From Rugalucina vietnamica (taxonomy: Eukaryota > Mollusca > Bivalvia > Lucinida > Lucinidae), in contig OZ024880.1 of NCBI GenBank assembly GCA_964017185.1, positions 39,584,329 to 39,648,328 on the forward strand: a DNA stretch of 64,000 bases, given 5' to 3'. Below the pieces are notes generated by a model, which was not told the DNA's origin, searched no databases, and worked only from the letters and a program-made list of their open reading frames with translations. The stretch's first letter is position 1. Each line of letters begins with the position of its first letter. Position numbers and translations under genes: made by a program. Below are positions 15,869-63,587 of this stretch, one piece after another.

Positions 15869-17089
15869 GAATGATGCTTTTTCTCAATTTTTGGTTAGGA
15901 ATAAACATTTTCTGGGCGGAATAATTCATAAAATATTAATTAATTGATAAGAAATTGTCATATCAGTGAATTGATAAGCAATGTTTAGGAAAATATTAAT
16001 AAATAGTCCATTTGGTTTCAGGAAAAAAGGCTCAATAGGGGGTTCATGAAATTGCCTAAATTTAGCTCCTCTGGAAATTGTTTGGAATTTGATTTATTAG
16101 CATGTTGTTTTGCCAGATGGTTCCATGTATGTGTTTGAGAATTGTTCTTCTTCTCGTTGATGTTATGTTTATTGGTGTTTTGATTATTTATTTGGATTTT
16201 ATTAGCTTTGCATTGTTCTGTCTGTTTTCATATTCAATTTGTTTTCCCTATATGGGGCCTCTATTTGCCTCCACAGCTACAGGACCTGTCCACCATTAAT
16301 TTTACTTACTTGAATCAATTGGAAATATTTTGTTTTTGTTTTATTAGTTAGTGGATATCAGTTTTGTCATATCAGAGGTTGGAGAGAAGGATTTATTTGC
16401 TTAATTTTTCTAACAATAGTTGTTATTAATGATTTTTATTTTGCAACAGGTGTCTATTGACTGTGACTGTACAAGCTGACCTACTTTCAGTTGAATAACT
16501 TGACCAAGGAAATTCCACTGGTAAAGTCCAGTTTTGAACGTTTGCCAGATGTTGAATATCTTGCTATATATTTAATATTTAGTTTTTCTTTGTTAAACCT
16601 ACCGGTATTCGAAGTTGGTACCGTAGAGTATCAAAATCCACTGTGATGGAGATCAATGTTTACGAAGAAAGAAATGACTCAAGGTTTGTATCACTCTTTT
16701 TATTTGATTGTCAATCTAGAGACTGTTGAATACTTGGAAATAGAATTGCGGGGTATTTCATGAACTTTTGGTCACTACAGTAGGTAGTATTTACCAAATG
16801 TTACTGTAATGCTTTTGGAATGCAGTTATACAAGTATAAGCTTTTCAAAAAGGCAGTGTCTAGCCTCTTCAGACCAGGAATCTAGCCATCTGGGTCTGGA
16901 CGCTTGCTGTCTGGTAGTGTTGGAGATTCTAACCAACAGGACCCCATTGGAAATAATCGACATGCATACTGTGTATTAGATCTACATAACCATTTGTTTT
17001 ATAAAAAAAATCTGTTTTTCATCTTTCACACTCTTGGGCACTGTTCTGTTGGTGGCACTAGGCTTGGTGACTTCCAGAGAAGGTGGGTC
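15869..17089. other. No gene seen
   Basis: T-rich sequence with one hydrophobic 65-codon plus-strand frame (16102-16299) that I regard as low-complexity translation of a T-rich stretch. No repeat boundaries recognised. Confidence 0.4.
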
Positions 17090-17256
17090 AGTGGTGAATT
17101 TAGAGGGGGTTCAAGGGGTTCGCTCGAACTCCCCTCAGGACCAAAATTATTTCATTTTCATAGGGAATTTAAAGAAATTTGTCTGAAATTAGGCAAACGT
17201 ACCCCCCATTTCTGCATTTGAACCCCCTCTTCAGAAATCCTGGATCCGCCCCTGTG
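17090..17256. repeat. Degraded repeat related to the GGATCC MITE
   Basis: Starts near GAATTTAGAGGGGGTTC and ends AACCCCCTCTTCAGAAATCC then TGGATCCGCCC. The GGATCC-containing end and the GGGGGTC/GACCCCC-type flanking tracts resemble the element at 52427-52606. Ends are inverted relative to each other (GGGGGTT against AACCCCC). Confidence 0.45.
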
Positions 17257-17310
17257 GGTGCAGTTGAAGAAGCTACCTATCTTCTGAGTCGATCAATTTC
17301 TGATCTTTAG

Positions 17311-17520
17311 GGAGTGCGGTGGCGTAGTGGTAGAGTGTCGGACTCCGAATCGAGAGGTCCTGAGTTCGATCCCCACAGGCGTCACCGTGTTGTGTCCTTG
17401 AGCAAGACACATTAACTCCCTACAGTACTGGTTAAACCCAGGAAGAGTTGGCTCCGTCCCGACTTGACTGAAAAATTGATGACTGGGACGTTAAGCCTCA
17501 ATACAAAAAAAAAAAACAAC
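17311..17520 (+). mobile_element. tRNA-derived SINE, copy 1
   Basis: The head resembles a tRNA: A box in GGCGTAGTGGTAGAGTG, a D-loop/anticodon-like stretch, and B box in GAGTTCGATCCCCAC. It is followed by the conserved TGTGTCCTTGAGCAAGACAC motif, then a 3' domain with CTGGTTAAACCCAGGAAGAG, CTGAAAAATTGATGACTGGG and an A-rich tail from about 17503. A tRNA head plus conserved central domain and A-rich tail defines a pol III SINE. This is not a functional tRNA: acceptor pairing and CCA-end structure are absent. Related copies lie at 20177, 23338, 54222, 63755 and, inverted, 23735. Confidence 0.9.
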
Positions 17521-17858
17521 AAAATTTCTGATCATCAGTCATCACCTCAGGTGTGGGGTGGTTGGCTAAATTTAGAATTTAGTCAAGGGGAAAATAGTTT
17601 TGGGGTCCACCATTAAAACTATTTACACTAAAACAACTGCCTCGATATGGGCCTATTTTTAAATAGAAACCTTAAATTCCTGAAATGGTCTTGGATGAGA
17701 CCACTCGAGAAGGGATACTTTTCCAAACCTGAATAGTTCTGGGGAAAAATGAATTTTTCAGGGCATCACTATTAGGTCTGATGCAAGTCAGGATTGAGGT
17801 TTGTAACCTCCATTGTGTTTTGAAATATGCATAGACATGTGCAAAATTTCGAAAAATG

Positions 17859-18271
17859 AAGCATTAGGCGTAAACAAAAAAAAGCTGTGTTTCCGCTAAC
17901 CAGTCCGACTCTTGAGTTTTTGCGCTGACCCTGCAGTTTTTATTGCCAATAAAAATAAAATAGAAATATTTTCATGCAGACCGACCCTCAACATTTGAAG
18001 TGGAAAACAGACAATGATTTAAAAACTGCTATAATTTCAACAATACTAGGTCAACTCGCATTCAGCTTCCTACTGGTTTTAAACTTCATCGCATGTTTGT
18101 TTCGAGTACTTACATGTATGATTAATTTCAGCATGTTTCTACCTCTTTACCCATTTTCAAGTAAGATAAAAATACACAAAAAAAATAAAAAAGATTTTCC
18201 CACCTACCGACTCTACCCCGTCTTCGGCATGTTAGCGGAAACAAGGCTATTTTTATTTTACGCCTTACGTT
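17859..18271. mobile_element. hAT-like MITE, 8-bp TSD
   Basis: Inverted ends around AGGCGTAAA and GTTTCCGCTAAC (17859-17901 against 18224-18271), with GAAAAATG directly abutting on both sides (17851-17858 and 18272-18279). An 8-bp target duplication is typical of hAT elements. The plus-strand frame 17974-18273 runs out into the right TIR and flank and is not taken as a gene. Confidence 0.6.
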
Positions 18272-18893
18272 GAAAAATGCAAAATTCTGCTTTGATAAAT
18301 CTGTTAACCTTGGTCGTTTACTTATTTTTGATACAACTGTTTTGAAAATTAATCTGAGAATATTTTTTTACAAAACATGTTTTTACCTAATGTTACCATT
18401 GTTTTCTGCTTACTTCTACTGTCCGGCATTGATGTCTTTCTGACTGACACAAACCTGGTTTCTGCCACTGACATCAGGTGTAAGTGGTAATCTTTTTTTT
18501 AAGTTTATACTTGTTTTCATTTTTTGTTTAATAGTATTTCAGCAATGTTAAACATCAAAATGATGATATTCTTAGAAAAAAGTATAAAATATACAGAAAG
18601 CAGCAGAAATACTTTTCAAATACATGCCATACATTGAAGACTATTATTTTAAATCTCAAGATTCAAAAATTATCCCATCCACTTATGAAATTGGAGGAAT
18701 TTGCAAAGAATTCTCAAACAGATTTTGCTGAAAAATGTTTCATTTGAAAGCTGCACATTTTGCAAGCAACATTGGCCCGGCCCGGAATGATGTTGCAATT
18801 TTTGCATAGCTACATGTATTTGTTTTTTCTCAATATAGATCTAGTAATTTCACATACATTTTCAAACCTCAATGAGGTTAAAAACCTTACCTC

Positions 18894-19262
18894 CAGGGAT
18901 TTTTTTGACAATTTTGGGAAGGGGCCCTAGGGCCTTTCTGATTGGGACAATTATCGAAGTAAATTCGGAATTGGGAAATTTCAAGTTCTAGACATTCAAA
19001 ATTGATATTTTCCAAAGTGGCATAGCTTAATAAGGGATTTCATTTAGAATAATTAGATAATAATTCATAATCAAAAGTGTCAAAAGTTAAATAACATTTC
19101 TAACAGCAAAGTTTGAATTTCACAATGTATGGAACTGTTGAAAATTATTTTCAGCTGTAATTGGGATTTTTTTCTCCAGATTGGGGAAAAAGACACCTAA
19201 TAGTAATTTGCAATGGGAATGAGGCCTAATTTCGGCCCCTGAGACACACAAAAAAATCCCTG
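18894..19262. mobile_element. MITE with CAGGG termini
   Basis: Perfect 14-bp TIRs CAGGGATTTTTTTG and CAAAAAAATCCCTG, 369 bp long, flanked by ACCTC on both sides (18889-18893 and 19263-19267). CAGGG termini with a short target duplication suggest a hAT-derived MITE, although hAT usually makes 8 bp. No coding capacity. Confidence 0.65.
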
Positions 19263-19369
19263 ACCTCAATCCTGATGTGTACCAGACCTGACTATAGGTA
19301 AATTGTCTTGTGCATTTCTTTAAGGTTGGGTGCTGGGGTCAGGTATTTGTTTTTATCAAGATATACTGT

Positions 19370-19640
19370 ACCAGAGTGCGTCTTAGGAGGACCGCTCCCT
19401 GCGGGACTCCAGCCAATGGCCACTCAAGTTTGTCTAGCATATCACCAACGCTACTGTCCTACAGGTCCACCTGGCTGCAGTCCTTTGCACCATCTCTATC
19501 TTAGCAGTCTGAGTATCATTATAGGCGGGATACCAAATAGGAGCTGCATACTCGAGTTGAGGTCGAACCAATGTTTTGTATGCAATTTCCTTAGTATAAT
19601 GCCTAGGTGCCAGTGCCAAATTATATGTATTTTGCTACAC
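19370..19640 (-). pseudogene. Decayed non-LTR retrotransposon fragment (reverse transcriptase C-terminal region)
   Basis: On the minus strand the frame reads LALAPRHYTKEIAYKTLVRP, then QLEYAAPIWYPAYNDTQTAK and VQRTAARWTC. The order 'YKTLVRP.LEYA..IW.P' then 'VQRTAARW' is characteristic of the region just after the reverse transcriptase fingers/palm in LINE ORF2 proteins of the Jockey/CR1-like group. A frameshift after WTC moves the continuation SSVGDMLDKLEWP to another frame, and further shifts follow. The catalytic YADD box is not present, so this is a short, dead 3' fragment. Confidence 0.8.
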
Positions 19641-20174
19641 GACCCATACCTGGATCTTTCCCTGGGTCTGGAACTGTGAGACATGATTTTTTCATATAAT
19701 TTTTTACACAATCAAACAGTTAAATGCATCCGCTGTGATATTTTTATTACTGGTTATCTAAATTTGCATCTTTAACACATTATCTTTTAACAAAACACTC
19801 TTTAAACTGTATCTTCTCACAGACTTATTTTTCATAAAATGGTGTCTTTCAAAATGTTGATTTATACTAGTACATTTTTTGATACATTTATGCGCATAAT
19901 ATTCGGGTATATAGGGTGGTATGGCAGGATAGATACATGTACATTGACAGTACTACTTCAAACTTGGATAAATACCAACAGACATGAAAATGCTGGAAGA
20001 GTTCAAATGATATTTGTCTGTTTCAGATTGTTGTTTTGGTTGAAAGATTGACACACTGACAATGTTGTATGTTGGATGTCAAGCAGCATAAAGATGTTTC
20101 AGTGTTATTTCAATGAAACAGTTTTTGGTAAGATCATCTTTAGTGATATTAGTCATCACATTACATACCGTAGT
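19641..20174. other. No gene seen
   Basis: AT-rich stretch between a LINE fragment and a SINE. Nothing recognisable. Confidence 0.4.
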
Positions 20175-20176
20175 AG

Positions 20177-20340
20177 GGAGCGGGGTGGCGTAATGGTAGA
20201 GTGTTGGACTCTAAATAAAGAGGTCCTGGGTTTGATCCCCACAGGCCTCACCGTGTTGTGTCCTTGAGCAAGACACTACAGTACTGGTTAAACCCATCCT
20301 GACAAGACTGAAAAATTGTTGACTGAGATGTAAGGCCTCA

Positions 20341-20371
<31 letters not shown>

Positions 20372-20372
20372 C
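20177..20372 (+). mobile_element. tRNA-derived SINE, copy 2, long poly-A tail
   Basis: Same head (GGCGTAATGGTAGAGTG, then GGGTTTGATCCCCAC), the TGTCCTTGAGCAAGACAC motif and the CTGAAAAATTGTTGACTGAG tail as copy 1, with a deletion in the middle of the 3' domain (the AGGAAGAGTTGGCTCC part is missing). It ends in about 30 adenines, longer than the other copies, which is consistent with comparatively recent insertion. Confidence 0.88.
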
Positions 20373-20869
20373 ATGACATAGTACACATGGCTTTTATGGG
20401 GTTACAGGATGTTTCACGCACAAACCAGTTCCTCCTGGGACTGTTTGTGTAAAAAAATATTTTTCGAACGGGACATTTACTCCCGAAGAGTGCCACATGT
20501 TTTAAAAAAATTGATTTTAATGTTGTTTTTTTTTCATTGAAATTATTTATTTTTTATGTCATTTCAACGAACTAAGACATCCAAATAGGATAAACAAGTC
20601 GCTTAAGGACTTCTAAAACTATATTTGGTGAACAGACCCATAAAATTGATTTTGAGCGAATCGTCTCACCTTTTTTAGCAAACAGCCCCATTCGATTTTT
20701 TGCGAAATAGTCCTGGAGGAAACGTCACAAGGAGAAACTGTTTTTAGGAGCCCTTTCATAGTACTCAGAAAGTGACTGCATGTATGTCCAATTTTGATAT
20801 GTGACAATGTCATTGTTTTGTTATTTTGTGTTACATGTATTACTGATGCGTGTATTCATTTATTTTCAG

Positions 20870-20908
20870 AGGGGAGAGAGCTTATATCATCAACAGCAAA
20901 TCGAGCAG
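20870..20908 (+). CDS. Candidate 39-nt micro-exon
   Basis: A strong 3' splice site (TTCATTTATTTTCAG) is followed 39 nt later by GCAG/GTAGTG, a usable 5' splice site. The segment is a multiple of three and open in two frames, reading RGESLYHQQQIEQ or, shifted by one, GERAYIINSKSS. Micro-exons of this size are common in animal genes. There is no second plus-strand exon nearby to support it, and the surrounding frame could instead run on to a stop at about 20988. Weak call. Confidence 0.15.
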
Positions 20909-21553
20909 GTAGTGAACCACAACAGAAAACTTATATTTTAAGTCAATTAGAGTGGATGACTGCATGTACAATAAACTGTTCACCCTAACTTAAATGATAA
21001 ATAATAGACTTTAATACAATCTGTGTTTTGAAGTGGACATGAGTTATAGTAATACTGTGAAGAAATCAAGATATAGTCGATATTACAAAGCAAAAATCAT
21101 TAAAGTTTAGTTTTAAAGCCCTGCTATAAAAAGGCTGGGCTATACTGGATTCAGTTTGACAGTGCCATTGACAAGATCTATTCTTGGGTTTGAACTGTGC
21201 ATCATTTTTTAGCATCCTGTGTTCTTTCCCATAGGCGTTTTATTGAAGCGAGGATTTAGTCTGATTCTCTGACAATTGTTGTTAAATACTTGTGTGTATG
21301 TATGTTTCTTCTGCATGAAGGATCTTGCTGTCTGTGACATAAGACCATGGTGAGAAGCTGTTAACAAAGATGTGCATGTGCACGAAACATGTTTCAGTGA
21401 TATATAGTAAGGATACCAAACCGATTATCCAGAACTGAGAACAGCCAACGCGGATAAAATCAGTAAAAGACTCAAAGACTGTAGTATGCAATTATGTGCC
21501 TTAGAACAACTTTACAAAAAAAAAATTGTGATCTGTGGAAAGTTGTCTCCACA

Positions 21554-22851
21554 ATGGCAAGCCGTTTTACTATTTATTCAAACAAACAGATATCTTATAT
21601 TGTATATAAGATATCTTCTTTAATAAATAAGATATCTACTTTATTTTATTAGATATCTATTATAAAGAAGATATCTTATATAGCAAATAAGATATCTGTT
21701 TTGTTATATTAGATATCTAAATTGTCATTTAAGATATCTTATATAGTATATAAGATATCATTTTAACTAAACAAGATATCTTATTTGTTAATGTAGATAT
21801 CTAAATTAACAAATAAGATATCTTGATTGATATATTAGATATCTTATTTGTAAAAATATATAAGATATCTTAATTAATATAGACATCTGATATAGCATTT
21901 AATTTGTTAATTTAGATATCTTGTTTAACAAATTAGATATCTAATATGATAAATTAGATATCAATAATGTTTTTTCTAAATAAGATATCTTAATTAATAT
22001 ATAAGATATCTAAAAAAGTATATTAGATATCTATTTTATCATATAAGATATCTTATTTGTCAAATAAGATATCTTCTTCAACATATAAGATATCTTAATT
22101 GCATTCACAAAAAAGATATCTACTATGCTAAAGTAGATATCTTATTTGACAAATAAGATATCTTATGTACACACAAAAATAGATATCTTATATCCTATAT
22201 TAGATATCTTATTTAGGTTTAACAAATCAGATATCTTATTTAGTACATAAGATATCTTATTTGTTTTACCCAATCACAATTGGTTTCTGATACTTATATA
22301 AGATATCTACAGTACTATACCAATACAGATATCTTATTTATAGCCTTAATCAAGATATCTTATTTGATAATTTAGATATCTAATATACTAAATAAGATAT
22401 CATATATATTAAATAAGATATATATTATACCTAAATAAGATATCTTATTTACCACTTTAGATATCTTATTTGCTATATAAGATATCTAGTTTAGCAATGA
22501 AGATATATATCTTATTTATGAAAGTAGATATCTTAATTAATCTTGTAAAGAAGATATCTTTTTTAGGTATAGTAGATATCTTATTTAGTATATTAGATAT
22601 CTTAATTATCAAATAAGATATCTTATATGCTATATAGGATATCTTAATTGTGGGATCAAATAAGATATCTTATTTAGCATATTAGGTATCTTCTTTACTA
22701 TATAAGATATCTAATTTAGGATATAAGATATCTTTTTTGATAAAAAGGATATCTTTATTGCTAAATAAGATATCTTATATCCTAATTAAGATATCTTATT
22801 TACTATTCAAGATATCTAATATGCATAATAAATAGTAAAACGGCTTGCCAT
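21554..22851. mobile_element. TIR element filled with a 21-bp-phased AGATATCT array
   Basis: Perfect inverted ends ATGGCAAGCCGTTTTACTAT (continuing TTATT) bound the segment. The flanks TCTCCACA (21546-21553) and ACTCCACA (22852-22859) agree at 7 of 8 bases, compatible with an 8-bp target duplication. Between them I count about 55 sites matching AGATATCT or a one-base variant. Starts run 21588, 21609, 21630, 21651, 21669, 21690, 21711, 21732, 21753 and onwards; most spacings are exactly 21 bp, with a minority of 18, 25-27 and one near 51. Spacer sequence is variable AT, so only the palindrome and its phase are conserved. No coding capacity. Confidence 0.85.
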
Positions 22852-22859
22852 ACTCCACA

Positions 22860-23337
22860 CAGGTATTTATCATGGCATCGACATTGTTTGTTTTCATTCA
22901 CAATTCTCTCTGAATATAAACCAGTGTGATATAGATTATAATACTTGCAATATGGATATGTTTATCAAGGTTGACTTTCTTTCATGACCCATTAATGGAG
23001 CCAGGACAAACATGACAATGCAGGTCACATGGAGTTTTCATGCTTAAATTCGAAAAACAAAAAAACACATTGCATGTGTTTTGTACAAACATGTACATGT
23101 ATTATATATGTAAATAGTGCATTTATGTTCTTTCATAGTGTGCATAAACAGAAATAAATACATGAAATTTCATGACTTATAAATTTTGCTGGTTTTAAAA
23201 TTTATGACTTCGAGATCAGTAGGTGAGTCGGGGTGCAAGAAAACCTGTCACCAGGGATTCAGAGTATGTTCCTGAAATTGAGCTATACAGGCATGATTGC
23301 TGCAGCCGAGGTTTAGCACATTACAGTCATGTACTTA
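22860..23337. other. No gene seen
   Basis: About 480 bp of AT-rich sequence between the AGATATCT element and a SINE. Nothing recognised. Confidence 0.4.
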
Positions 23338-23605
23338 GTGAGGGCAGTGGCGTAGTGTTGAATCACAAAGTTCTGGGTTCAAACCCCACTGGGACTTGGT
23401 TGCGTCCTTGAGCAAGACACATCTGAATCTGAATGGTTTACTGGTGACACGCCAAATTGACAATACTTCACCGGGGGTGCGCCAGGAGGGAAATTAGTCC
23501 ATGGCTCTCATGATTTTCACCCTGGTTGATACCCAGAAAACCGTCGCACCATCCGGACATAACTGAAAAATTGATGACCAAGAAGGAATGTTAGACCTTA
23601 AATCA
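23338..23605 (+). mobile_element. Divergent tRNA-derived SINE, copy 3
   Basis: A degraded tRNA-like head (GGCAGTGGCGTAGTGTTGAA, GGGTTCAAACCCCACTGGG), the conserved GCGTCCTTGAGCAAGACACA motif and a longer, different middle (about 23430-23530) before the shared CTGAAAAATTGATGACCAAG tail. It represents a subfamily distinct from copies 1, 2 and 4. Confidence 0.7.
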
Positions 23606-23734
23606 AACACCAGAATTTTTAGAGCTAAAATGGCGTAGTCAGCAGCTGTCAGATTTTTAAGAAAGACTAAGAAACAACACTTTACAAAATGTACAACCCA
23701 CATTTGAGCTGTGCAACCTTTTGGTTTGATTTAG

Positions 23735-23940
23735 GTATGGATGTGACGTCCCAGTCAACAATATTTCTGTCATGTCCCCAGCTTGGGACACTCCTTTGTG
23801 TGTATTAACCAGTACTTTCCAGAGTCAATGTCCCTTGCTCATCGTGCAGTGATATAAGCCAGCCACCAGTGGGGATCCACTCCCTACCTCCCTAACCAGA
23901 GTCTGATGCACTAACCACCAGGCCAACATGCTCCTTTGAA
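23735..23940 (-). mobile_element. tRNA-derived SINE, inverted copy
   Basis: On the minus strand the head reads GGCCTGGTGGTTAGTGCATC with a B-box-like GTGGATCCCCACTGG, then GATGAGCAAGGGACA in place of the usual GAGCAAGACAC, and the tail ACATGACAGAAATATTGTTG followed by ACTGGGACGT. The head differs enough from the other copies to suggest a separate tRNA-derived subfamily sharing the 3' domain. Confidence 0.65.
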
Positions 23941-23977
23941 TGCATATTTGTATGCTAGTATACGCGCCAGGTCCCAT

Positions 23978-24500
23978 TTTTAGCTCACCTGAGCCGTTAT
24001 GTTCACAAGGTGAGCTTATAGTATACCCATGCTCCATCGACCATCGTCGTTGTAGTCATTGTTGTCCACAATGTTCAGTGAAACATCTCTAAAACCACTG
24101 GGCCAATCAAAGCCAAACTTTATATGGAGCATCCTCAGGAAGGGGGAACGAAAGTTATTTCCGCCATGGCTATAAGTAGCAAAACCTTTAAAAATCTTCT
24201 TTTCCAGAACCATAAGGCCTATGATTTTGAAACTTGGCATGAAGCATCAGGCAATGGAGCTCTACAAAGTTTGTATAAATCAATCCATGGCCCTCTGATG
24301 ACCTTGACCTAATTAACTGCAAGGTCAACATAGATCACATGCATTTGAATGGGGAAAATTGTTAAAATGTGATTTGAAGGGCAAAACTTGCAGGACATGG
24401 GCAAATGGATGGACTATTTATGTTTACAAAAACATTTTGGCCCCAGGGGGTTATCTGCCCCTGCACCGGGGCTATATACATGTATATGACTATAATTTTC
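23978..24500 (+). mobile_element. GCTCACCTGAGC-family element, divergent remnant
   Basis: Begins TTTTTAGCTCACCTGAGC and GGTGAGCTTATAGTATACCC, then carries the family tracts GGGCCAATCAAAGCCAAAC and TATGGAGCATCCTC and a TTCTTTTCCAGAACC box. It includes TATACATGTATATGAC near the 3' side, which also occurs in the inverted remnant at 51323-51945, so these two form one subfamily separate from the three large copies. The canonical 3' hairpin is not visible here. Confidence 0.75.
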
Positions 24501-25410
24501 AAACATCATGTCCGGATTGAATTGACATTTCGTAGGTTCTTAACTCTTTTTTGCTCACCACCAAAAGAAATCAAGAGGGGAGGGGTTCATCACCCGACCC
24601 TCACATATTTCTTAACCATTCTTAAGTTTTGCATTCAGTCTTATTCTTCAATCATGACTTGTTCAGAAATACTGCATTAATTATTAAATTAAAGGATGAC
24701 TGCTCGTTTGAATTTTTTAAATTTCTTTTTATGTGACTACATCGCTCGAGTTAGTATACCGATTATACATTTTATTTGCCTAAACTGAGTGTGTAGTCAT
24801 AGTCGGAACCGGATCAGTAATGTCTGTATATTTGGTAATTGACCAAAATGCCCGAATCAGTGGAAAGCAGTCCGGTGAATGAAGGAATTTTAACACGGAG
24901 CCGTTTCCATAATAAAACCTTAGCAAATCAAGCCATATTTCTTTTTAGTATTTCTACCACTTTTATCACACCGCCCAATTATTACATGTGGCTACATGTT
25001 ATAGCTTTTCTTGTTATTTTTATTATTACCATCTTTATCACTTTATGTTTTGTTTGGTTTGATGTTGTAGCCTTTTATGTCCCACTTAACAATATTCGAT
25101 CATGCCGGGACTGAGGTACTTGACCAGTTATTTGGTAACTTAAAATAGGCTTGTTCAAGGACACTTCATGGCAACAGTTTGTTTTAAACAAAATTCTAAC
25201 GCACCATGGTCTGAAACTCTACCATAATGCCACCGTGCTCCTCGAATCGGGTGGATTCTCATCCATTCAATGTTTCCCATTCTATGGGCATGTTTTGATT
25301 CTGATTATGACATTTCCTCATCATTGCTTTATTTTAACATGAAAATCATGTCCTAATACATTTATATACTGATATACCGGTATGTATTTTCTCTCGGTCT
25401 TTTATAATTA
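24501..25410. other. No confident gene; one hydrophobic frame
   Basis: The plus-strand frame 24839-25114 has an ATG in a reasonable context at 24848 (MPESVESSPVNEG...) and two hydrophobic stretches, but no family resemblance and T-rich codons. It is noted, not called. Nothing else recognised. Confidence 0.3.
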
Positions 25411-25540
25411 TGACTTTTTTCCTGTGACTTTATTTCCTGTGACTTTTTTTCCGTGACTTTTTTTCCGTGACTTTTTTTCCTGTGACTTTTTTTCCGTCCA
25501 CCATATGGAATTTTCCTGTGACTTTTTTTCCGTCCACCAT
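25411..25540. repeat. GTCAC/poly-A minisatellite, locus 2 (inverted)
   Basis: Units of TGACTTTTTTTCCTG and TGACTTTTTTTCCG in tandem, the complement of the arrays at 15780 and 63494. It ends in two copies of CCGTCCACCATATG, the same GTGGACGG boundary seen at the start of the 63494 array, which suggests the array is part of a mobile unit and not a simple microsatellite. Confidence 0.8.
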
Positions 25541-42151: not shown

Positions 42152-44280
42152 TTAGCTCACCTGAGCCGAAGGCTCACAAGGTGAGCTTATAGGATGGCCA
42201 TGATCCGGCGTCCGTCCGTCCGTCCGTCGTCCGTCGTCCACAATTTCAAAGATCTTCTTCTCTGAAACCGCTTGGCCGATCTAGTTGAAATTTTATGTGG
42301 AGCCTCCTTGGGTAGTGGCATTTCAAGTTTGATCGCAAAATCCAGGTCACATGACCAAGATGGCCGCCACGCCCATATATGGTAAAAACCCTTCAAAAAT
42401 CTTCTTCTCCAGAACCGGTGGGCGGATTTCCACGAAACTTGGTATGTAGCATCGGGGACTTCAGCCCATCATAGTTTGATAAAATGATGACCCTTGGATG
42501 ACCTTGACCTATTTTACGGCAAGGTCAAATTTGGAAACATAGGCTTTTACATGGGAAAAAGTGAAAACTATGGATTTTTTGAAAACTATTGCAGCCTGAG
42601 GCCTGAAAAGTGGTAGATGCAAACAACTAATGGAGTAGATGAAGGTATGTGATTAATATAGGTCAAGGTCATCTCTTGACCTTGGCCAGTCTGTTGTCCA
42701 TACACACTTTTCAAAGATCTTCTTCTCTGAAACTGCTTGGCCAATCAAAGTGAAATTTTATGTGGAGCATCCATGGGTAGGGGAGACGAAAGTTTGATCG
42801 CGAAATCCAGGTCACATGACCAAGATGGCCGCCACGCCCATATATGGTAAAAACCTTTCAAAAATCTTCTTCTCCAGAACCGGTGGGCCGATATCCACGA
42901 AACTTGGTATGTAGCATTGGAGACCTCAGCCCATCATAGTTTGATAAAATGATGACCCTATGATGACCTTGACATATTTTACGGCAAGGTCAAATTGGAA
43001 ACATAGGCTTTTACATAGGAAGAAGTGAAAACTACGGATTTTTTGAAAATTATTGCAGCCCGAGGCCTGAAAAGTGGTAGATGCAAACAACTAATGGAGT
43101 AGATGAAGGTATGTGATTAAAATAGGTCAAGGTCATCTCTTGACCTTGGCCAGTCTGTTGTCCATACACACTTTTCAAAGATCTTCTTCTCTGAAACTGC
43201 TGGGCCAATCAAAGTGAAATTTTTTGTGGAGCATCCATGGGTAGGGGAGACGAAAGTTTGATCGCGAAATCCAGGTCACATGACCAAGATGGCCGCCACG
43301 CCCATATATGGTGAAAACCACTAAAAAATCTTCTTCTCCAGAATCGGTGGGCCGATTTCCACGAAACTTTGTATGTAGCATCAGGGACCTCAGCCCATCA
43401 TAGTTTGATAAAATGATGACCCTTGGATGACCTTGAATTATTTTACGGCAAGGTCAAATTTGGAAACATAGGCTTTTACATAGGAAGAAGTGAAAACTAT
43501 GGATTTTTTGAAAATTATTGCAGCCTGAGGCCTGAAAAGTGGTAGATGCAAACAACTAATGGAGTAGATGAAGGTATGTGATTAATATAGGTCAAGGTCA
43601 TCTCTTGACCTTGGCCAGTCTGTTGTCCATACACACTTTTCAAAGATCTTCTTCTCTGAAACTGCTTGGCAAATCAAAGTGAAATTTTATGTGGAGCATC
43701 CATGGGTAGGGGAGACGAAAGTTTGATCGCGAAATCCATGTCACATGACCAAGATGGCCGCCACGCCCATATATGGTGAAAACCTTTCAAAAATCTTCTT
43801 CAGAACCGGCAGGCCAATTTTCATGAAACTTGGTATGTAGCATTTGGGACTCCAGCCCATCATAGTTTGTTGAAATGAAGACCCTATGATGACCTTGACC
43901 TATTTTACGGCAAGGTCAATTTTGGAAACATAGGCTTTTAAATGGGAAAAGGCAAAAACAAACTTGCAGCCTGAGACCTGAAAGTTGCTAGATGCAGACA
44001 ACTAATGGAGTCAATGAAGGTAAGTAATTACTGAAGGCCAAGGTCATGTCTTGACCTTGGCCCAAGGTCATTTAAATATCAAAATTAAAATTATGGTTTT
44101 CTCAGAAATCACTGGGTTTGGAAACTATTGCAGCCTGAGACCTGAAACTTTGCAGATGCAGACAACTTATGAAGTCAATAAAGGTGTGTGAGTATTCAAG
44201 GTCAAGGTCATTTCATTATGACTTAATACTCCAAGATCAGGCTTCAGGTGAGCGTTCTCAGGACCAATGGTCCTCTGGTT
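42152..44280 (+). mobile_element. GCTCACCTGAGC element, copy A (2.1 kb)
   Basis: Starts TTAGCTCACCTGAGCCGAAG; GCTCACCT pairs with AGGTGAGC and GAGCC with GGCTC to form a hairpin head. A GTCCGTCC run follows. The body has repeated monomers of about 465 bp (start of GGCCAGTCTGTTGTCCA near 42684, 43147 and 43612), each with TCTTCTTCTCTGAAACTGC, GGTCACATGACCAAGATGGC, CCCATATATGG and TTTACGGCAAGGTCAA. It ends CAGGTGAGCGTTCTC, then the hairpin AGGACCAATGGTCCT and CTGGTT. Conserved hairpin-bearing ends around tandem monomers is the pearl/Helentron-like plan. No protein is encoded. Confidence 0.9.
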
Positions 44281-44528: not shown

Positions 44529-46409
44529 TGAGCCGCACCATGAGAAAACCAGATTTTTAGCTCACCTGAGCCGAAGGCTCACAAGGTGAGCTTATAGGAT
44601 GGCCATGATCCGGCGTCCGTCCGTCCGTCGTCCGTCGTCCACAATTTCAAAGATCTTCTTCTCTGAAACCGCTTGGCCGATCTAGTTGAAATTTTATGTG
44701 GAGCCTCCTTGGGTAGTGGCATTTCAAGTTTGATCGCGAAATCCAGGTCACATGACCAAGATGGCCGCCACGCCCATATATGTTAAAACTGCTCAAAAAT
44801 CTTCTTCTCCAGAACCGGTGGGCCGATTTCTACGAAACTTGGTATGTAGCATCGAGGACTTCAGCCCATCATAGTTTGATAAAATGATGACCCTTGGATG
44901 ACCTTGACCTATTTTACGGCAAGGTCAAATTTGGAAACATAGGCTTTAACATGGGAAAAAGTGAAAACTATGGATTTTTTGAAAACTATTGCAGCCTGAG
45001 GCCTGAAAAGTGGTAGATGCAAACAACTAATGGAGTAGATGAAGGTATGTGATTAATTTAGGTCAAGGTCGTCTCTTGACCTTGGCCAGTCTGTCGTCCA
45101 TACACACTTTTCAAAGATCTTCTTCTCTGAAACTGCTGGGCCAATCAAAGTGAAATTTTATGTGGAGCATCCATGGGTAGGGGAGACGAAAGTTTGATTG
45201 CGAAATCCAGGTCACATGACCAAGATGGCTGCCACGCCCATATATGGTAAAAACCACTCAAAAATCTTCTTCTCCAGAACCGGCAGGCCGATTTTCATGA
45301 AACTTGATATGTAGCATTGGCGACTCCAGCCCATCATAGTTTGATAAAATGATGACCCTAGGATGACCTTGACCTATTTTACGGCAAGGTCAATTTTGGA
45401 AACATAGGCTTTTACATGGGAAAAAGTGAAAACTATGGATTTTTTGAAAAACTATTGCAGCCTGATGCCTGAAAAGTGGTGGATGCAAACAACTAATGGA
45501 GTAGATGAAGGTATGTGATTAATTTAGGTCAAGGTCATCTCTTGACCTTGGCCAGTCTGTCGTCCATACACACTTTTCACAGATCTTCTTCTCTGAAACT
45601 GCTGGGCCAATCAAAGTGAAATTTTATGTGGAGCATCCATGGGTAGGGGAGACGAAAGTTTGATCGTGAAATCCAGGTCACATGACCAAGATGGCTGCCA
45701 CGGCCATATATGGTAAAAACCACTCAAAAATCTTCTTCTCCAGAACCGGCAGGCCAATTTTTGCGAAACTTGGTATGTAGCATTTGGTACTCCAGCCCAT
45801 CATAGTTTGATCAAATGATGACCATAGAATGACCTTGACCTATTTTACGGCAAGGTCAATTTTGGAAACCTAGGCTTTTACATAGGAAAAGGCGAAAACA
45901 ATGGATATTTTGGAAACTGTTGCAGTCTGAGACCTGAAAGTTGCTAGATGCAGACAACCGATGGAGTCAATGAAGGTAAGTAATTAATGAAGGCCAAGGT
46001 CATTTCTTGACCTTAACGCAAGGTCATTTGAATATCAAAATTATGGTTTTCTCAGAAATCACTGGGTTTGGAAACTATTGCAGACAACTTGTGAATTCAA
46101 TAAAGGTGTGTGAGTATTCAAGGTCAAGGTCATTTCATGATGACTAAATACTCCAGGATCAGGCTTCAGGTGAGCGTTCTCAGGACCATTGGTCCTCTGG
46201 TTGCATTTGCGAAAACGAAGGCGCAGATCAGCTGTGCAGTAACTGCACAGCTGATCAGCGCCTTTGTTTTCGCTACTCGGATAGTACAATTCCTCTTCTA
46301 CTTATAGCCAAAATTTCAAGCTTCTAGTCTGCTTCTGTGACTGTACAGGCTGGTTTGTGTCGGAGCTGGACGGAAACCCCGAAGACTAGTTTTCTCGCGT
46401 CATGGCTCA
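44529..46409 (+). mobile_element. Hairpin MITE family 1, copy e, interrupted
   Basis: The left TIR TGAGCCGCACCATGAGAAAA ends at 44553. The rest of the MITE, from GCATTTGCGAAAACGAAGGC through the central hairpin to TTTTCTCGCGTCATGGCTCA, resumes at about 46201 and ends at 46409. The two parts are separated by the 1.65-kb element 44554-46200. Joined, they match other copies of this family (for example ACCAGAGTTTTGCCTATGCG in copy b), so the MITE was there first. Confidence 0.9.
44554..46200 (+). mobile_element. GCTCACCTGAGC element, copy B, inserted in a MITE
   Basis: Same head hairpin, GTCCGTCC run, ~465-bp monomers (GGCCAGTCTGTCGTCCA near 45083 and 45548) and 3' hairpin as copy A, with about one monomer fewer. 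It interrupts a family 1 MITE in a T run (ACCAGATTTT | ... | GCATTTGCG), with no target duplication beyond T residues. That is the expected result for Helentron-type insertion between T and T. The head is nearly identical to copy A's, so the copies are close relatives. Confidence 0.9.
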
Positions 46410-54641: not shown

Positions 54642-56795
54642 AACCAGAGGACCATTGGTCCTGAGAACGCTCACCTGAAGCCTGATCCTGCAGTATTAAG
54701 TCATCATGAAATGACCTTGACCTTGAATACTCACACACCTTTATTGAATTCATAAGTTGTCTGCATCTGCAAAGTTTCAGGTCTCAGGCTATAATAGTTT
54801 CCAAACCCAGTGATTTATGAGAAAACCACAATTTTAATTTTGATATTTAAATGACTTTGGGTCAAGGTCAAGAAATGACCTTGGCCTTCATTAATTACTT
54901 ACCTTCATTGACTCCATTGGTTGTCTGCATCTAGCAACTTTCAGGTCTCAGACTGCAACAGTTTCCAAAATATCCATTGTTTCCGCCTTTTCTCATGTGA
55001 AAGCCTATGTTTCCAAAATTGACCTTGTCGTAAAATAGGTCAAGGTCATCCTATGTTCATCATTTGATTAAACTAGGATGGGCTGGAGTCCCAAATGCTA
55101 CATACCAAGTTTCGCGAAAATTGGCCTGCCGGTTCTGGAGAAGAAAATTTTTGAGTGGCTTTTACCATATATGGGCGTGGCGGCCATCTTGGTAATGTGA
55201 CCTGGATTTCGCGATCAAACTTTCGTCTCCCCTACCCATGGATGCTCCACATAAAATTTCACTTTGATTGGCCCAGCAGTTTCAGAGAAGAAGATCTTTG
55301 AAAAGTGTGTATGGACGACAGACTGGCCAAGGTCAAGAGATGACCTTGACCTACATTAATCACATACCTTCATCTACTCCATTAGTTGTTTGCATCTACC
55401 ACTTTTCAGGCATCAGGCTGCAATAGTTTTCAAAAAATCCATAGTTTTCACTTTTTCCCATGTAAAAGCCTATGTTTCCAAATTTGACCTTGCCGTAAAT
55501 TAGGTCAAGGTTATCCAAGGGTCATCATTTTATCAAACTATGATGGGCTGAAGTCCCCAATGCTACATACCAAGTTTCGTGGAAATCGGCCAACCGGTTC
55601 TGGAGAAGATTTTTGAGTGGTTTTTACCATATATGGGCGTGGCAGCCATCTTGGTCATGTTACCTGGATTTCGCGATTAAATTTTTGTCTCCCCTACCCA
55701 TGGATGCTCCACATAAAATTTCACTTTGATTGGCCCAGCAGTTTCAGAGAAGAAGATCTTTGAAAAGTGTGTATGGACGACAGACTGGCCAAGGTCAAGA
55801 GATGACCTTGACCTACATTAATCACATACCTTCATCTACTCCATTAGTTGTTTGCATCTACCACTTTTCAGGCATCAGGCTGCAATAGTTTTCAAAAAAT
55901 CCATAGTTTTCACTTTTTCCCATGTTAAAGCCTATGTTTCCAAAATTGACCTTGCCGTAAATTAGGTCAAGGTCATCCTAGGGTCATCATTTTATCAAAC
56001 TATGATGGGCTGAAGTCCCAAATGCTACATACCAAGTTTCATGAAAATCGGCCTGCCAGTTCTGGAGAAGAAGATTTTTGAGTGGTTTTTACCATATATG
56101 GGCATGGCAGCCATCTTGGTCATGTGACCTGGATTTCGCAATCAAACTTTCGTCTCCCCTACCCATGGATGCTCCACATAAAATTTCACTTCGATTGGCC
56201 CAGCAGTTTCAGAGAAGAAGATCTTTGAAAAGTGTGTATGGACGACAGACTGGCCAAGGTCAAGAGATGACCTTGACCTACATTAATCACATACCTTCAT
56301 CTACTCCATTAGTTGTTTGCATCTACCACTTTTCAGGCCTCAGGCTGCAATAGTTTTCAAAAAATCCATAGTTTTCACTTTTTCCCATGTTAAAGCCTAT
56401 GTTTCCAAATTTGACCTTGCTGTAAAATAGGTCAAGGTCATCCAAGGGTCATCATTTTATCAAACTAGGATGGGCTGAAGTCCCTGATGCTACATACCAA
56501 GTTTCGTGGAAATCGGCCCACCGGTTCTGGAGAAGAAGATTTTTGAAGGGTTTTTACCATATATGGGCGTGGCGGCCATCTTGGTCATGTGACCTGAATT
56601 TCGCAATCAAACTTGAAATGCCACTACCCAAGGAGGCTCCACATAAAATTTCAACTAGATCGGCCAAGCAGTTTCAGAGAAGAAGATCTTTGAAATTGTG
56701 GACGACGACGACGACGGACGGACGACGGACGGACGCCAGATCATGGCCATCCTATAAGCTCACCTTGTGAGCCTTCGGCTCAGGTGAGCTAAAAA
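54642..56795 (-). mobile_element. GCTCACCTGAGC element, copy C (2.15 kb)
   Basis: Complement of copies A and B: AACCAGAGGACCATTGGTCC, then ~465-bp monomers (GACAGACTGGCCAAGGTCAA near 55315, 55785 and 56246), then GGACGGACGACGGACGGACG and GAGCCTTCGGCTCAGGTGAG ending in CTAAAAAT. It has about the same number of monomers as copy A. Frames such as 56078-56353 and 56543-56770 read across monomers (MKGFYHIWAWRPSWSC and similar, repeated at each monomer) and are not genes. Confidence 0.92.
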
Positions 56796-58404: not shown

Positions 58405-59868
58405 TAGCCCAGATAGCTCAGCAGGGAGCCCCGATAGCTCAGCGGAGAGCCCCGATAGCTCAGCGGTGAGCTCAGATAGCTCAGCGGGGAGCCCAGATAG
58501 GTCAGTGGGGAGCCCTGATAGCAGCAGGGACCCTGGAGCCCAGATAGCTCAGCGGGGAGCCAAGATAGCTCAGGGGGCACAGATAGCTCAGCAGGGAGCC
58601 CAGATAGCTCAGTGGGGAGCCCAGATAGCTCAGTGGTGAGCCCAGATAGCTCAGTGAGGAGCCCAGGATAGCTCAGTGGGGAGCCCAGATAGCTCAGCAC
58701 GGAGCCCAGATAGCTCAGCAGGGAGCCCAGCGAGGAGCCCATAATAGCTCAGCTGGGAGCCCAGATAGCTCAGCGGGGAGCCCAGATAGCTCAGCAGGGA
58801 ACCCATATAGCTCAGCAGGGGGCCCAGATAGCTCAGCAGGGAGCCCAGATAGCTCAGCGGGGAGCCCAGATAGCTCAGTGGGGAGCCCAGATAGCTCAGC
58901 AGGCAACCCATATATAGCTCAGCAGGAAGCCCATATAGCTCAGCAGGGAGCCCAGATAGCTCAGCAGGGAGCCCAGATAGCTCAGCAGGGAACCCAGATA
59001 GCTCTCAGCAGGGAGCCCAGATAGCTCAGCAGCTAGCCCTGATAGCTCAGAAGGGAGCCCTCCCTGACAGCTCAGCAGGGAGCCCAGATAGCTCAGCAGG
59101 AAGCCCAGCAGGGAGCCCAGATAGCCGGGAACCCAGATAGCTCAGCAGCGAGCCCAGATAGCTCAGCAGGGAACCCAGATAGCTCAGCAGCGAGCCCAGC
59201 AGAGAGCCCAGATAGCTCAGAGGGGAGCCCAGATAGCTCAAGAGGGAGCCCAGATAGCTCAGGAGGGCCCAGATAGCTCAGCCGGGAGCCCAGATAGCTC
59301 AGCAGGAAGCCCAGCAGGGAGCCCAGATAGCTCAGCAGGAAGCCCAGCAGGGAGCCCAGATAGCCGGGAACCCAGATAGCTCAGCAGCGAGCCCAGATAG
59401 CTCAGCAGGGAACCCAGATAGCTCAGCAGCGAGCCCAGCAGAGAGCCCAGATAGCTCAGAGGGGAGCCCAGATAGCTCAAGAGGGAGCCCAGATAGCTCA
59501 GGAGGGCCCAGATAGCTCAGCCGGGAGCCCAGATAGCTCAGCAGGAAGCCCAGCAGGGAGCCCAGATAGCTCAGCCGGGAACCCAGATAGCTCAGCACGG
59601 AGCCTGGATAGCTCAGCAGGGACCCCAGATAGCTCAGCAGGGACCCCAGATAGCTCAGCAGGGACCCCAGATAGCTCAGCAGGGAACCCATGCCAGATAG
59701 CTCAGCAGGGAGCCCAGCAGGGAGCCCAGATAGCTCAACGGGGAGCCCAGATAGCTCAGCAGGGAGCCCAGATAGCTCAGCAGGAAGCCCAGCTAGCTCA
59801 GCTGGGAACCCAGATAGCTCAGCGGGGAGCCCAGATAGCTCAGCGGGGAACCCAGATACCCGAGTCCG
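58405..59868. repeat. 1.46-kb minisatellite, 21-bp unit, A-box-like
   Basis: About 70 units of 21 bp with consensus AGCTCAGCAGGGAGCCCAGA then T, read AGATAGCTCAGCGGGGAGCC when started elsewhere. Since 21 is a codon multiple, both strands have long repetitive frames (minus ELSGLPA and SYLGSLL, plus DSSAGSP); the longest is 196 codons (59332-59922). Stops, missing splice sites and frame switches between units argue against a gene. Typical units contain TAGCTCAGCGGG, which fits the RNA polymerase III A-box consensus TRGYNNARNNGG. A ~239-bp block (about 59101 and 59340) is itself duplicated within the array. Confidence 0.93.
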
Positions 59869-63493: not shown

Positions 63494-63587
63494 GTGGACG
63501 GAAAAAAAGTCACAGGAAAAAAAGTCACGGAAATAAAGTCACGGAAAAAAAGTCACAGGAAAAAAAGTCACAGGAAAAAAAGTCACA
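63494..63587. repeat. GTCAC/poly-A minisatellite, locus 3
   Basis: Six or seven units GGAAAAAAAGTCACA or GGAAATAAAGTCAC, preceded by GGTGGAC. The same GTGGACGG junction appears, inverted, at 25495-25540. It lies 13 bp upstream (in minus-strand sense) of the candidate exon 63399-63479. Confidence 0.85.

What the first reader, a model, noticed from the sequence alone, without database searches (positions are those of the whole stretch)
21554..22851. TIR-bounded element made of AGATATCT palindromes spaced 21 bp apart
About 55 copies of an 8-bp palindrome sit mainly at exact 21-bp intervals, two turns of B-DNA, so they lie on one face of the helix. Spacers vary freely, so the phase and the palindrome are what is kept. 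Off-phase steps are mostly +5 or -3 bp. The array is enclosed by perfect 25-bp TIRs and near-identical 8-bp flanks. I know no described MITE with this interior. Possible meanings: a protein-binding array (transposase, chromatin or silencing factor), or a satellite seed that moves as a transposon.
Basis: seen in the sequence. Interest (0 to 1): 0.8.

Follow-up and report, generated by a model that had tools for sequence, protein, structure and literature searches.

The report
Jumping gene with phased palindrome arms
A DNA transposon in an animal genome carries two long arms built from about 55 copies of the same short palindrome on a two-helical-turn grid; comparing subfamilies indicates that natural selection keeps the palindromes while the DNA between them drifts, so they are probably docking sites for the protein that moves the element.

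Summary
In detail: 25-bp perfect TIRs, 46 exact AGATATCT (55 with at most one mismatch), 38 of 54 steps exactly 21 bp. The reading needs four corrections. (1) It is not hAT. Independent copies end TATGG..CCATA with 6-bp target duplications, the IS3EU signature; a decayed copy (L055) joins one array arm to an integrase-type transposase gene. (2) The window copy sits inside a 9.1-kb Helentron-like element (15908-25015) that spread after capturing it; about 40 related repeats have the same site empty. (3) Spacers are not free: each unit is a degenerate 20-bp palindrome, YAWWTA-AGATATCT-TAWWTR. (4) The array is two arms around a deleted centre. The key result is a natural experiment: between subfamilies A and B cores differ at 8/426 positions, other positions at 198/788 (p=3e-31), while among copies within a subfamily cores and spacers decay alike. 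So the palindromes are kept by selection on the transposing lineages. In subfamily B both arms also share a rhythm of 26-bp (half-turn) shifts. Best explanation: binding-site arrays for the IS3EU transposase or a partner, as in Spm or Galileo but denser and helically phased. Binding is untested.

The parts
15908..25015 (+). Non-coding Helentron-like (rolling-circle) carrier element with many close copies in the genome; holds the TIR element
15914..15919 (+). GGGCGG, 5' half of a short subterminal inverted repeat of the carrier
24971..24999 (+). CCGCCC (3' half of the subterminal repeat) and 3' palindrome ACATGT-GGCT-ACATGT, 16 bp before the carrier's 3' end
   Evidence: features as in PMC4067079
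21547..21552 (+). Target-site duplication CTCCAC, left copy
22853..22858 (+). Target-site duplication CTCCAC, right copy
21553..21578 (+). Left terminal inverted repeat (25 perfect bp from 21554; base 21553 is the element's outermost base, A here where independent copies have T)
22827..22852 (-). Right terminal inverted repeat with its outermost base
21588..22257 (.). Left arm: 31 palindromic sites, AGATATCT cores mainly every 21 bp
22258..22300 (+). 43-bp remnant of the deleted centre (contains TTTTACCCAATCACAATT); in the subfamily-B copies read the centre is 0.5-1.5 kb
22301..22817 (.). Right arm: 24 palindromic sites

Best explanation
The piece is a non-autonomous IS3EU-type cut-and-paste transposon. 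Its two arms, about 24-33 sites each, are arrays of a 20-bp palindromic site, YAWWTA-AGATATCT-TAWWTR, set mainly 21 bp (two helical turns) apart. Shown: it inserts as a unit with 6-bp duplications; the arrays belong to the element family, and one arm stands next to an integrase-type transposase gene; cores and register are kept in the transposing lineages, not in single copies. Inferred: the sites are bound in trans by dimers of the element's transposase (it has a helix-turn-helix-like exon) or of a partner, side by side on one face of the DNA, so that long protein-coated arms recognise and pair the two ends. The 26-bp steps, placed alike in both arms of some copies, would turn successive blocks of 5-6 sites to the other face and limit or pack the filament. 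The copy in the window was captured by a Helentron-like element and spread with it.
For: Independent insertions: 8 of 11 TIR pairs read outside the carrier have a perfect 6-bp duplication next to T[ATGG..CCAT]A (L031, L032, L040, L043, L047, L051, L052, L053). Empty sites with a single CTCCAC: 41 matches to a 35-base junction at up to 3 mismatches, 26 exact, control 0; with 299 bases of joined flank, all 40 places scored (of 289 candidates) run through the junction at 90-96%. Filled junctions: 113 matches, control 0. IS3EU signature TAYGG..CCRTA and 6-bp duplications: PMC12730594, PMC10045372 (passages). Transposase: L055 holds a subfamily-B arm (22 exact cores), then exons hitting Pfam rva_4 integrase core (E 3.8e-45 and 8.7e-19); weak IS481 (E 0.0045) and resolvase-HTH (E 0.069) hits. 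B centres (L047, L053) keep the start of the same gene. Selection: A (window) against B (L047) cores 8/426, other 198/788, p=3e-31; in the right arms, all ten A-B pairs (window, L036 by five B copies) have core 0.9-4.9%, other 24-27%; all ten within-B pairs have core 0-4.7%, other 1.0-3.4%; within A (6 copies against the window) 76/2452 and 171/4750, p=0.28. A and B arms are colinear, above all 100 unit-shuffled controls. Rhythm: first core at base 35 in both arms of the five elements examined; in L047 and L052 the first four 26-bp steps from the centre outward fall at the same places in both arms, although left and reversed right spacers are no more alike than unit-shuffled (L047, window). 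Half-sites do not covary, within a site or across a spacer, as expected for protein contacts rather than base-paired structure.
Against: No binding data. No intact autonomous copy: L055 has one arm only in 18.5 kb, its gene has stops, and it is the only close transposase match (next 66% and 65%, both with stops). Two other loci of the transposase family (L057, L058; 8 kb each) show no 21-bp array, but their ends were not found. At up to 3 mismatches there are 1617 TIR ends but only 622 with a core at the expected place (different mismatch budgets), so some TIR carriers may lack the array or have lost it; L059 has a decayed one. The mirrored rhythm is weaker in L051 and L053 (one step off or an extra 26) and loose in subfamily A (L036). 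The empty repeats are 4-10% different from the window flanks and mostly stop matching at window 22999, so they are relatives of the target, not identical carriers. No phylogenetic placement against Repbase IS3EU. The selection test rests on two lineages, A and B.
Confidence: 0.72

Rival explanations
1. The array is bound by a host factor (chromatin, silencing, insulator or transcription factor) and is kept because it helps the element escape silencing or be transcribed, not because the transposase needs it.
For: Lineage-level conservation would look the same; the site is short and palindromic like many host sites (general knowledge); an arm also lies just upstream of the transposase start.
Against: Both arms are kept in deletion derivatives without a full gene (L047, L051-L053). 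First core at base 35 from both ends, and the shared rhythm in part of the copies, point to a role of the ends.
Confidence: 0.17
2. A neutral minisatellite that happened to arise in the element; the palindrome is only the slowest part of a decaying 21-bp repeat.
For: Many length differences between copies are 21 or 26 bp; arrays of this type slip and recombine; L018 holds a 1.07-kb segment three times.
Against: 25% spacer against 2-3% core divergence between A and B; neighbouring spacers are no more alike than distant ones and all 38 normal-length spacers are distinct; cores and spacers decay alike inside one subfamily.
Confidence: 0.05
3. Selection is for nucleic-acid structure (cruciforms, or a self-complementary transcript) rather than for a protein site.
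For: Every unit is a palindrome, so either strand can fold on itself.
Against: No covariation of the two half-sites of one core or of facing halves (mean identity 3.55 against 3.56 shuffled, 3.68 against 3.69; one of 12 per-position tests reached p=0.03). The same core sequence is kept, not just pairing.
Confidence: 0.04
4. It is a hAT MITE, or an internal part of the Helentron.
For: The flanks look like a near 8-bp duplication.
Against: 6-bp duplications with TATGG ends in 8 independent copies; 6-bp hAT families exist (PMC12730594), so the integrase-type transposase beside the arm weighs more than the length. The element exists outside the carrier.
Confidence: 0.02

Closest known systems
IS3EU (IS3EU/GingerRoot) DNA transposons (PMC10045372, PMC12730594; passages read)
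   Same: Ends TATGG..CCATA (TAYGG..CCRTA), 6-bp duplications, integrase-core transposase with a weak IS481 hit.
   Different: TIR 26 bp (over 30 bp in the rust-fungus families described); 0.5-0.7-kb arms of phased palindromes, not mentioned in the passages I read.
Galileo (P superfamily), THAP sites in long TIRs (PMC3688188; abstract and passages)
   Same: Long, internally repetitive ends with several transposase binding sites.
   Different: Galileo-G has 3 identified sites in a 1.2-kb TIR, long repeat units and another superfamily; here about 55 short palindromes on a 21-bp grid.
En/Spm-type CACTA subterminal repeats bound by TNPA (PMC2613891; passages)
   Same: Repeated short motifs near both ends that act as the cis requirement for transposition.
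   Different: Different ends, duplication length and transposase; the motifs there are fewer and loosely spaced (recalled, not checked).
Tetris foldback element of Drosophila virilis (PMC4079207; passages)
   Same: Terminal arms with tandem repeats, non-autonomous, varying unit number.
   Different: About 220-bp units 87-94% alike; here 21-bp units in which the core and a few positions are kept, and the two arms are not inverted repeats by sequence.
Helentron / HINE elements (PMC4067079; passages)
   Same: The carrier has T-rich ends, subterminal inverted repeat, 3' palindrome, no duplication, no coding capacity.
   Different: It is the vehicle, not the finding: 9.1 kb with a captured IS3EU element.

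Membership tests
IS3EU | 6-bp target-site duplication | tested here: met
   8 of 11 independent pairs perfect (fails: L036 4 of 6, L049 inverted flanks, L050 not alike); empty relatives of the target with one CTCCAC
IS3EU | TA..TA termini, TAYGG..CCRTA in described families | tested here: met
   T[ATGGC..GCCAT]A in the 8 independent copies with perfect duplications; the captured copy in the window has one changed outermost base
IS3EU | IS3/IS481-related integrase-core transposase | tested here: inconclusive
   L055, arm plus gene: Pfam rva_4 E 3.8e-45, NCBIfam IS481 E 0.0045; no tree against named IS3EU proteins; only one decayed copy
hAT | Usually 8-bp duplication (5-, 6- and 7-bp hAT groups exist, PMC12730594) and a hAT transposase | tested here: not met
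   Duplication 6 bp with TATGG ends; the transposase beside the arm is of integrase type
Helentron (carrier 15908-25015) | Subterminal inverted repeat, 3' palindrome, T-rich ends, no duplication | tested here: met
   GGGCGG 6 bp from the 5' end, CCGCCC 45 bp and palindrome 16 bp from the 3' end; no duplication of 2 bp or more in 7 of 7 copies read at both ends; the inverted part is only 6 bp, so 'Helentron-like'
Helentron (carrier) | Encodes Rep/helicase | tested here: not met
   No ORF above 125 aa; 4 ORFs tested have no Pfam match: non-autonomous at best
Foldback / Galileo-type long TIR element | Arms are long inverted repeats of each other | tested here: not met
   Left arm against reversed right arm no better than unit-shuffled controls in L047 and the window
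Subterminal transposase-site array (works like Spm, Galileo) | Protein binds the repeats | not testable with these tools
   Only selection on cores and register shown

The most novel reading that the evidence does not exclude
The arms encode a transposition complex of a kind not described: dozens of transposase (or partner) dimers polymerise on a two-turn lattice into a phased filament along each arm, and half-turn register shifts, placed alike in both arms while spacer sequence has been randomised, set the block size or let the arms pair or wrap.
Probability: 0.3. Interest if true: 0.82.

Novelty: new variant of a known kind. Interest (0 to 1): 0.6.

Why it matters
Binding-site arrays at transposon ends are known, but as far as I recall with fewer sites and loose spacing. 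Here the DNA alone seems to write out the footprint of a large complex: site, dyad, register, block length, and which changes are tolerated. The genome also supplies the control (copies decaying freely against lineages under selection), filled sites and empty relatives of the target, and a transposase gene next to an arm, so the idea can be tested directly. It also shows a cut-and-paste element multiplying inside a rolling-circle element.

Tried and rejected
Prokaryotic arrays with the same motif spacing (L001-L004) are short repeats with other spacer sequences and no such length; the same pattern found nothing in viral contigs. hAT, rejected on ends, duplication and transposase. L049 was first taken as a third subfamily; its flanks are reverse complements (299 of 300) and the outer part of its right arm is a reversed left arm, so it was dropped from the pooled within-A test (6 of 7 copies used) and from the A-B pairs. 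Left and right arms as diverged inverted repeats: not above unit-shuffled controls. RNA or cruciform selection: no covariation among sites. Other transposase relatives as carriers of arrays: none in L057, L058. A PDB sequence search with the integrase exon found nothing. A search for terminal inverted repeats of the target repeat that stops at 22999 found none. Paper searches: 'AGATATCT' (514 papers, 20 listed, none relevant by title), bivalve/MITE/hAT, IS3EU (35 papers hold the word, 25 listed; passages read in three), subterminal/palindrome terms. Repbase cannot be searched here, so novelty rests on these searches only.

Full report
Check. The stretch is as described: perfect 25-bp TIRs, 46 exact AGATATCT, 55 with at most one mismatch, 38 of 54 steps of 21 bp, autocorrelation peaks at 21 and 42. 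Random sequences with the same short-range composition do not reproduce it.

The unit. The 13-bp spacers are not free. Over the 38 spacers of normal length the columns read W A W W T R N Y A W W T W, symmetric about a centre 10.5 bp from the core's centre (1 of 20000 column permutations as symmetric). Over 110 half-sites (both sides of 55 cores) the fifth base is T in 105 and the sixth a purine in 103. At the 16 non-21 steps, 30 of 32 halves still have T-R at those two places, so a 26-bp step is two intact 20-bp sites with a 6-bp instead of a 1-bp link. The two halves of a site do not covary, and neighbouring spacers are no more alike than distant ones.

The carrier. A genome search with 1401 bases around the piece gave 40 best places at 89-100% identity (the window included), 35 of them over the full query, flanks outside the TIRs included (40 of 861 candidates scored, so counts are lower bounds). 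In the copies read further (9 loci each) the shared unit is window 15908-25015, mostly 97-99% identical (90-91% in parts of L020 and L021, where array pieces align twice). It has no ORF above 125 aa, T-rich ends, GGGCGG/CCGCCC near the ends, a 3' palindrome, and no duplication of 2 bp or more in 7 of 7 copies read at both ends. These are the features of non-autonomous Helentrons given in PMC4067079 (passages). The inverted subterminal part is only 6 bp, so I say Helentron-like.

The passenger. The TIR 25-mer occurs 814 + 803 times at up to 3 mismatches, control 0. All 20 hold the array, 29-57 exact cores each, modal step 21 in all 20. Twelve have carrier flanks (L037 on one side only, with a changed left flank); eight have their own flanks. 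With three more copies found later (L051-L053) that makes 11 independent pairs, of which 8 show a perfect 6-bp duplication beside T[ATGG..CCAT]A (GCTCCA, GTAGAG, AAAATG, GTTAAA, CAAGTC, TATTTC, TTTTAG, AATAAG); L036 agrees at 4 of 6, L050 has no likeness and L049 is rearranged. A 35-base junction of the two flanks with one CTCCAC occurs 41 times, 26 exact, control 0. With 299 bases of joined flank, all 40 places scored (of 289 candidates) run through the junction at 90-96% identity, but nearly all stop at query base 290, window 22999. So the site is also found empty, in a repeat family related to the target: either carrier variants or an older repeat nested in the carrier; I could not tell which. 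Filled junctions number 113, control 0, at least one of which (L032) is an independent insertion with a similar flank. The element therefore moved as a unit. A 6-bp duplication and TAYGG..CCRTA ends are the stated signature of IS3EU (PMC12730594, PMC10045372; passages).

Two arms and a centre. The 43-bp odd spacer at 22258-22300 is a remnant of a centre that in subfamily B (L047, L051-L053) is 0.5-1.5 kb long. L055 (C11) has a subfamily-B right arm (TIR with 2 mismatches, 22 exact cores), the same centre edge, and then pieces of a gene: N-terminal exon, helix-turn-helix-like exon, integrase core (Pfam rva_4, E 3.8e-45 and 8.7e-19). The start of that gene is still present in the centres of L047 and L053. 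No second arm lies in the 18.5 kb fetched and the gene has stops, so L055 is a decayed, incomplete relative of the autonomous element. At up to 3 mismatches only five B right ends exist in the assembly, all five already read.

Selection. A (window) and B (L047) arms are colinear: alignment scores 416 and 283 against maxima of 306 and 235 in 100 unit-shuffled controls each. Labelled by the window's cores alone, cores differ at 8/426 positions and the rest at 198/788 (Fisher p=3e-31); labelled by L047's cores it is 13/440 against 193/774. In the right arms all ten A-B pairs (window and L036 by L047, L051, L052, L053, L055) show core 0.9-4.9% and other 24-27%. Copies of one subfamily, which differ by decay after insertion, show no contrast: all ten within-B pairs have core 0-4.7% and other 1.0-3.4%; L047 against L055 is 8/206 and 9/375, p=0.31; A, six copies against the window, 76/2452 and 171/4750, p=0.28 (L049 dropped). 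L047 has 57 of 58 cores exact. Cores are thus kept clean at the level of lineages that keep transposing. Register is kept too: from the TIR inward the right arms of A (L036) and B (L051) agree in 18 of the first 19 steps, the left arms in the first 14.

Rhythm. In the five elements examined (L036, L047, L051-L053) the first core lies at base 35 in both arms. In L047, from the centre outward, both arms run 21, 26, 21x4, 26, 21x5, 26, five steps, 26 (one 22 in place of a 21). L052 places the four 26s the same way; L051 is one unit short in the left arm, L053 lacks the innermost step and has an extra 26, and L036 matches only loosely. The spacer sequences of the two arms are no more alike than unit-shuffled ones in L047 and the window. 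A 26-bp step is about 2.5 turns, so successive blocks of 5-6 sites would face opposite sides. Chance of four matching positions among 19 is about 1 in 3900 by simple counting (inference, made after seeing the pattern; if the arms arose by inverted duplication, the shared rhythm is inherited, which still means it outlived the spacer sequence).

Mechanism. Shown: mobility as a unit, an arm beside a transposase gene, conservation of core and register between lineages. Inferred: the sites bind dimers of the transposase or an element-coded partner; array length gives specificity and pairs the ends, as proposed for Galileo (PMC3688188) and described for Spm/TNPA (PMC2613891). A host factor remains possible.

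Limits. One assembly, host not named (repeat types look molluscan, a recalled impression). At up to 3 mismatches 622 TIR ends have a core in place against 1617 TIR ends, with different mismatch budgets; among the 100 exact TIR ends listed 85 do, and two of the elements among the other 15 (L043, L050) still hold arrays. What the remaining TIR carriers contain is open.

Noticed in passing
L018 (G000:C1:20733667-20743169): A carrier copy holds the segment matching window 21390-22460 three times in tandem, about 1.07 kb each: a possible start of a satellite.
   Followed up: partly
G000 contig C11: 28 of 65 matches to the integrase exon lie on C11, a 56-Mb contig of a 1.09-Gb genome (some are neighbouring pieces of one locus; 15 of the 28 have stops inside): an unexplained pile-up of IS3EU-like genes on one chromosome.
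   Followed up: no
L049 (G000:C3:21682633-21684669): Element copy whose 300-bp flanks are reverse complements (299 of 300) and whose right arm partly repeats the left arm: an inverted duplication centred on the element.
   Followed up: partly
L059 (G000:C1:11583700-11585200): Another subfamily (TIR followed by CAAGAAAGC) with a decayed array and a second copy of part of the TIR inside it; no second TIR in the 1.5 kb read.
   Followed up: partly
window 22999: Nearly all of the 40 empty-site relatives scored stop matching the window here, which suggests an older repeat boundary inside the carrier; no terminal inverted repeat found.
   Followed up: partly
window 17308-17410 and 20174-20276: tRNA-like, SINE-like sequence twice within the carrier, 89% alike (the tRNA likeness is recalled, not tested).
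   Followed up: no
window 42244-43948, 44645-46014, 54863-56695; also L058 5312-6419: Tandem arrays with units of 463-466 bp recur in the window and elsewhere; the units at 42244, 44645 and in L058 look the same, the one at 54863 was not compared.
   Followed up: no
window 25411-25497 and 63500-63587: 15-bp arrays of TGACTTTTTTTCC, in opposite orientation at the two places.
   Followed up: no
window 58406-59858: A second array with 21- and 42-bp period and another sequence (AGCCCAGATAGCTCAGCAGGG), open for over 170 aa on both strands.
   Followed up: no
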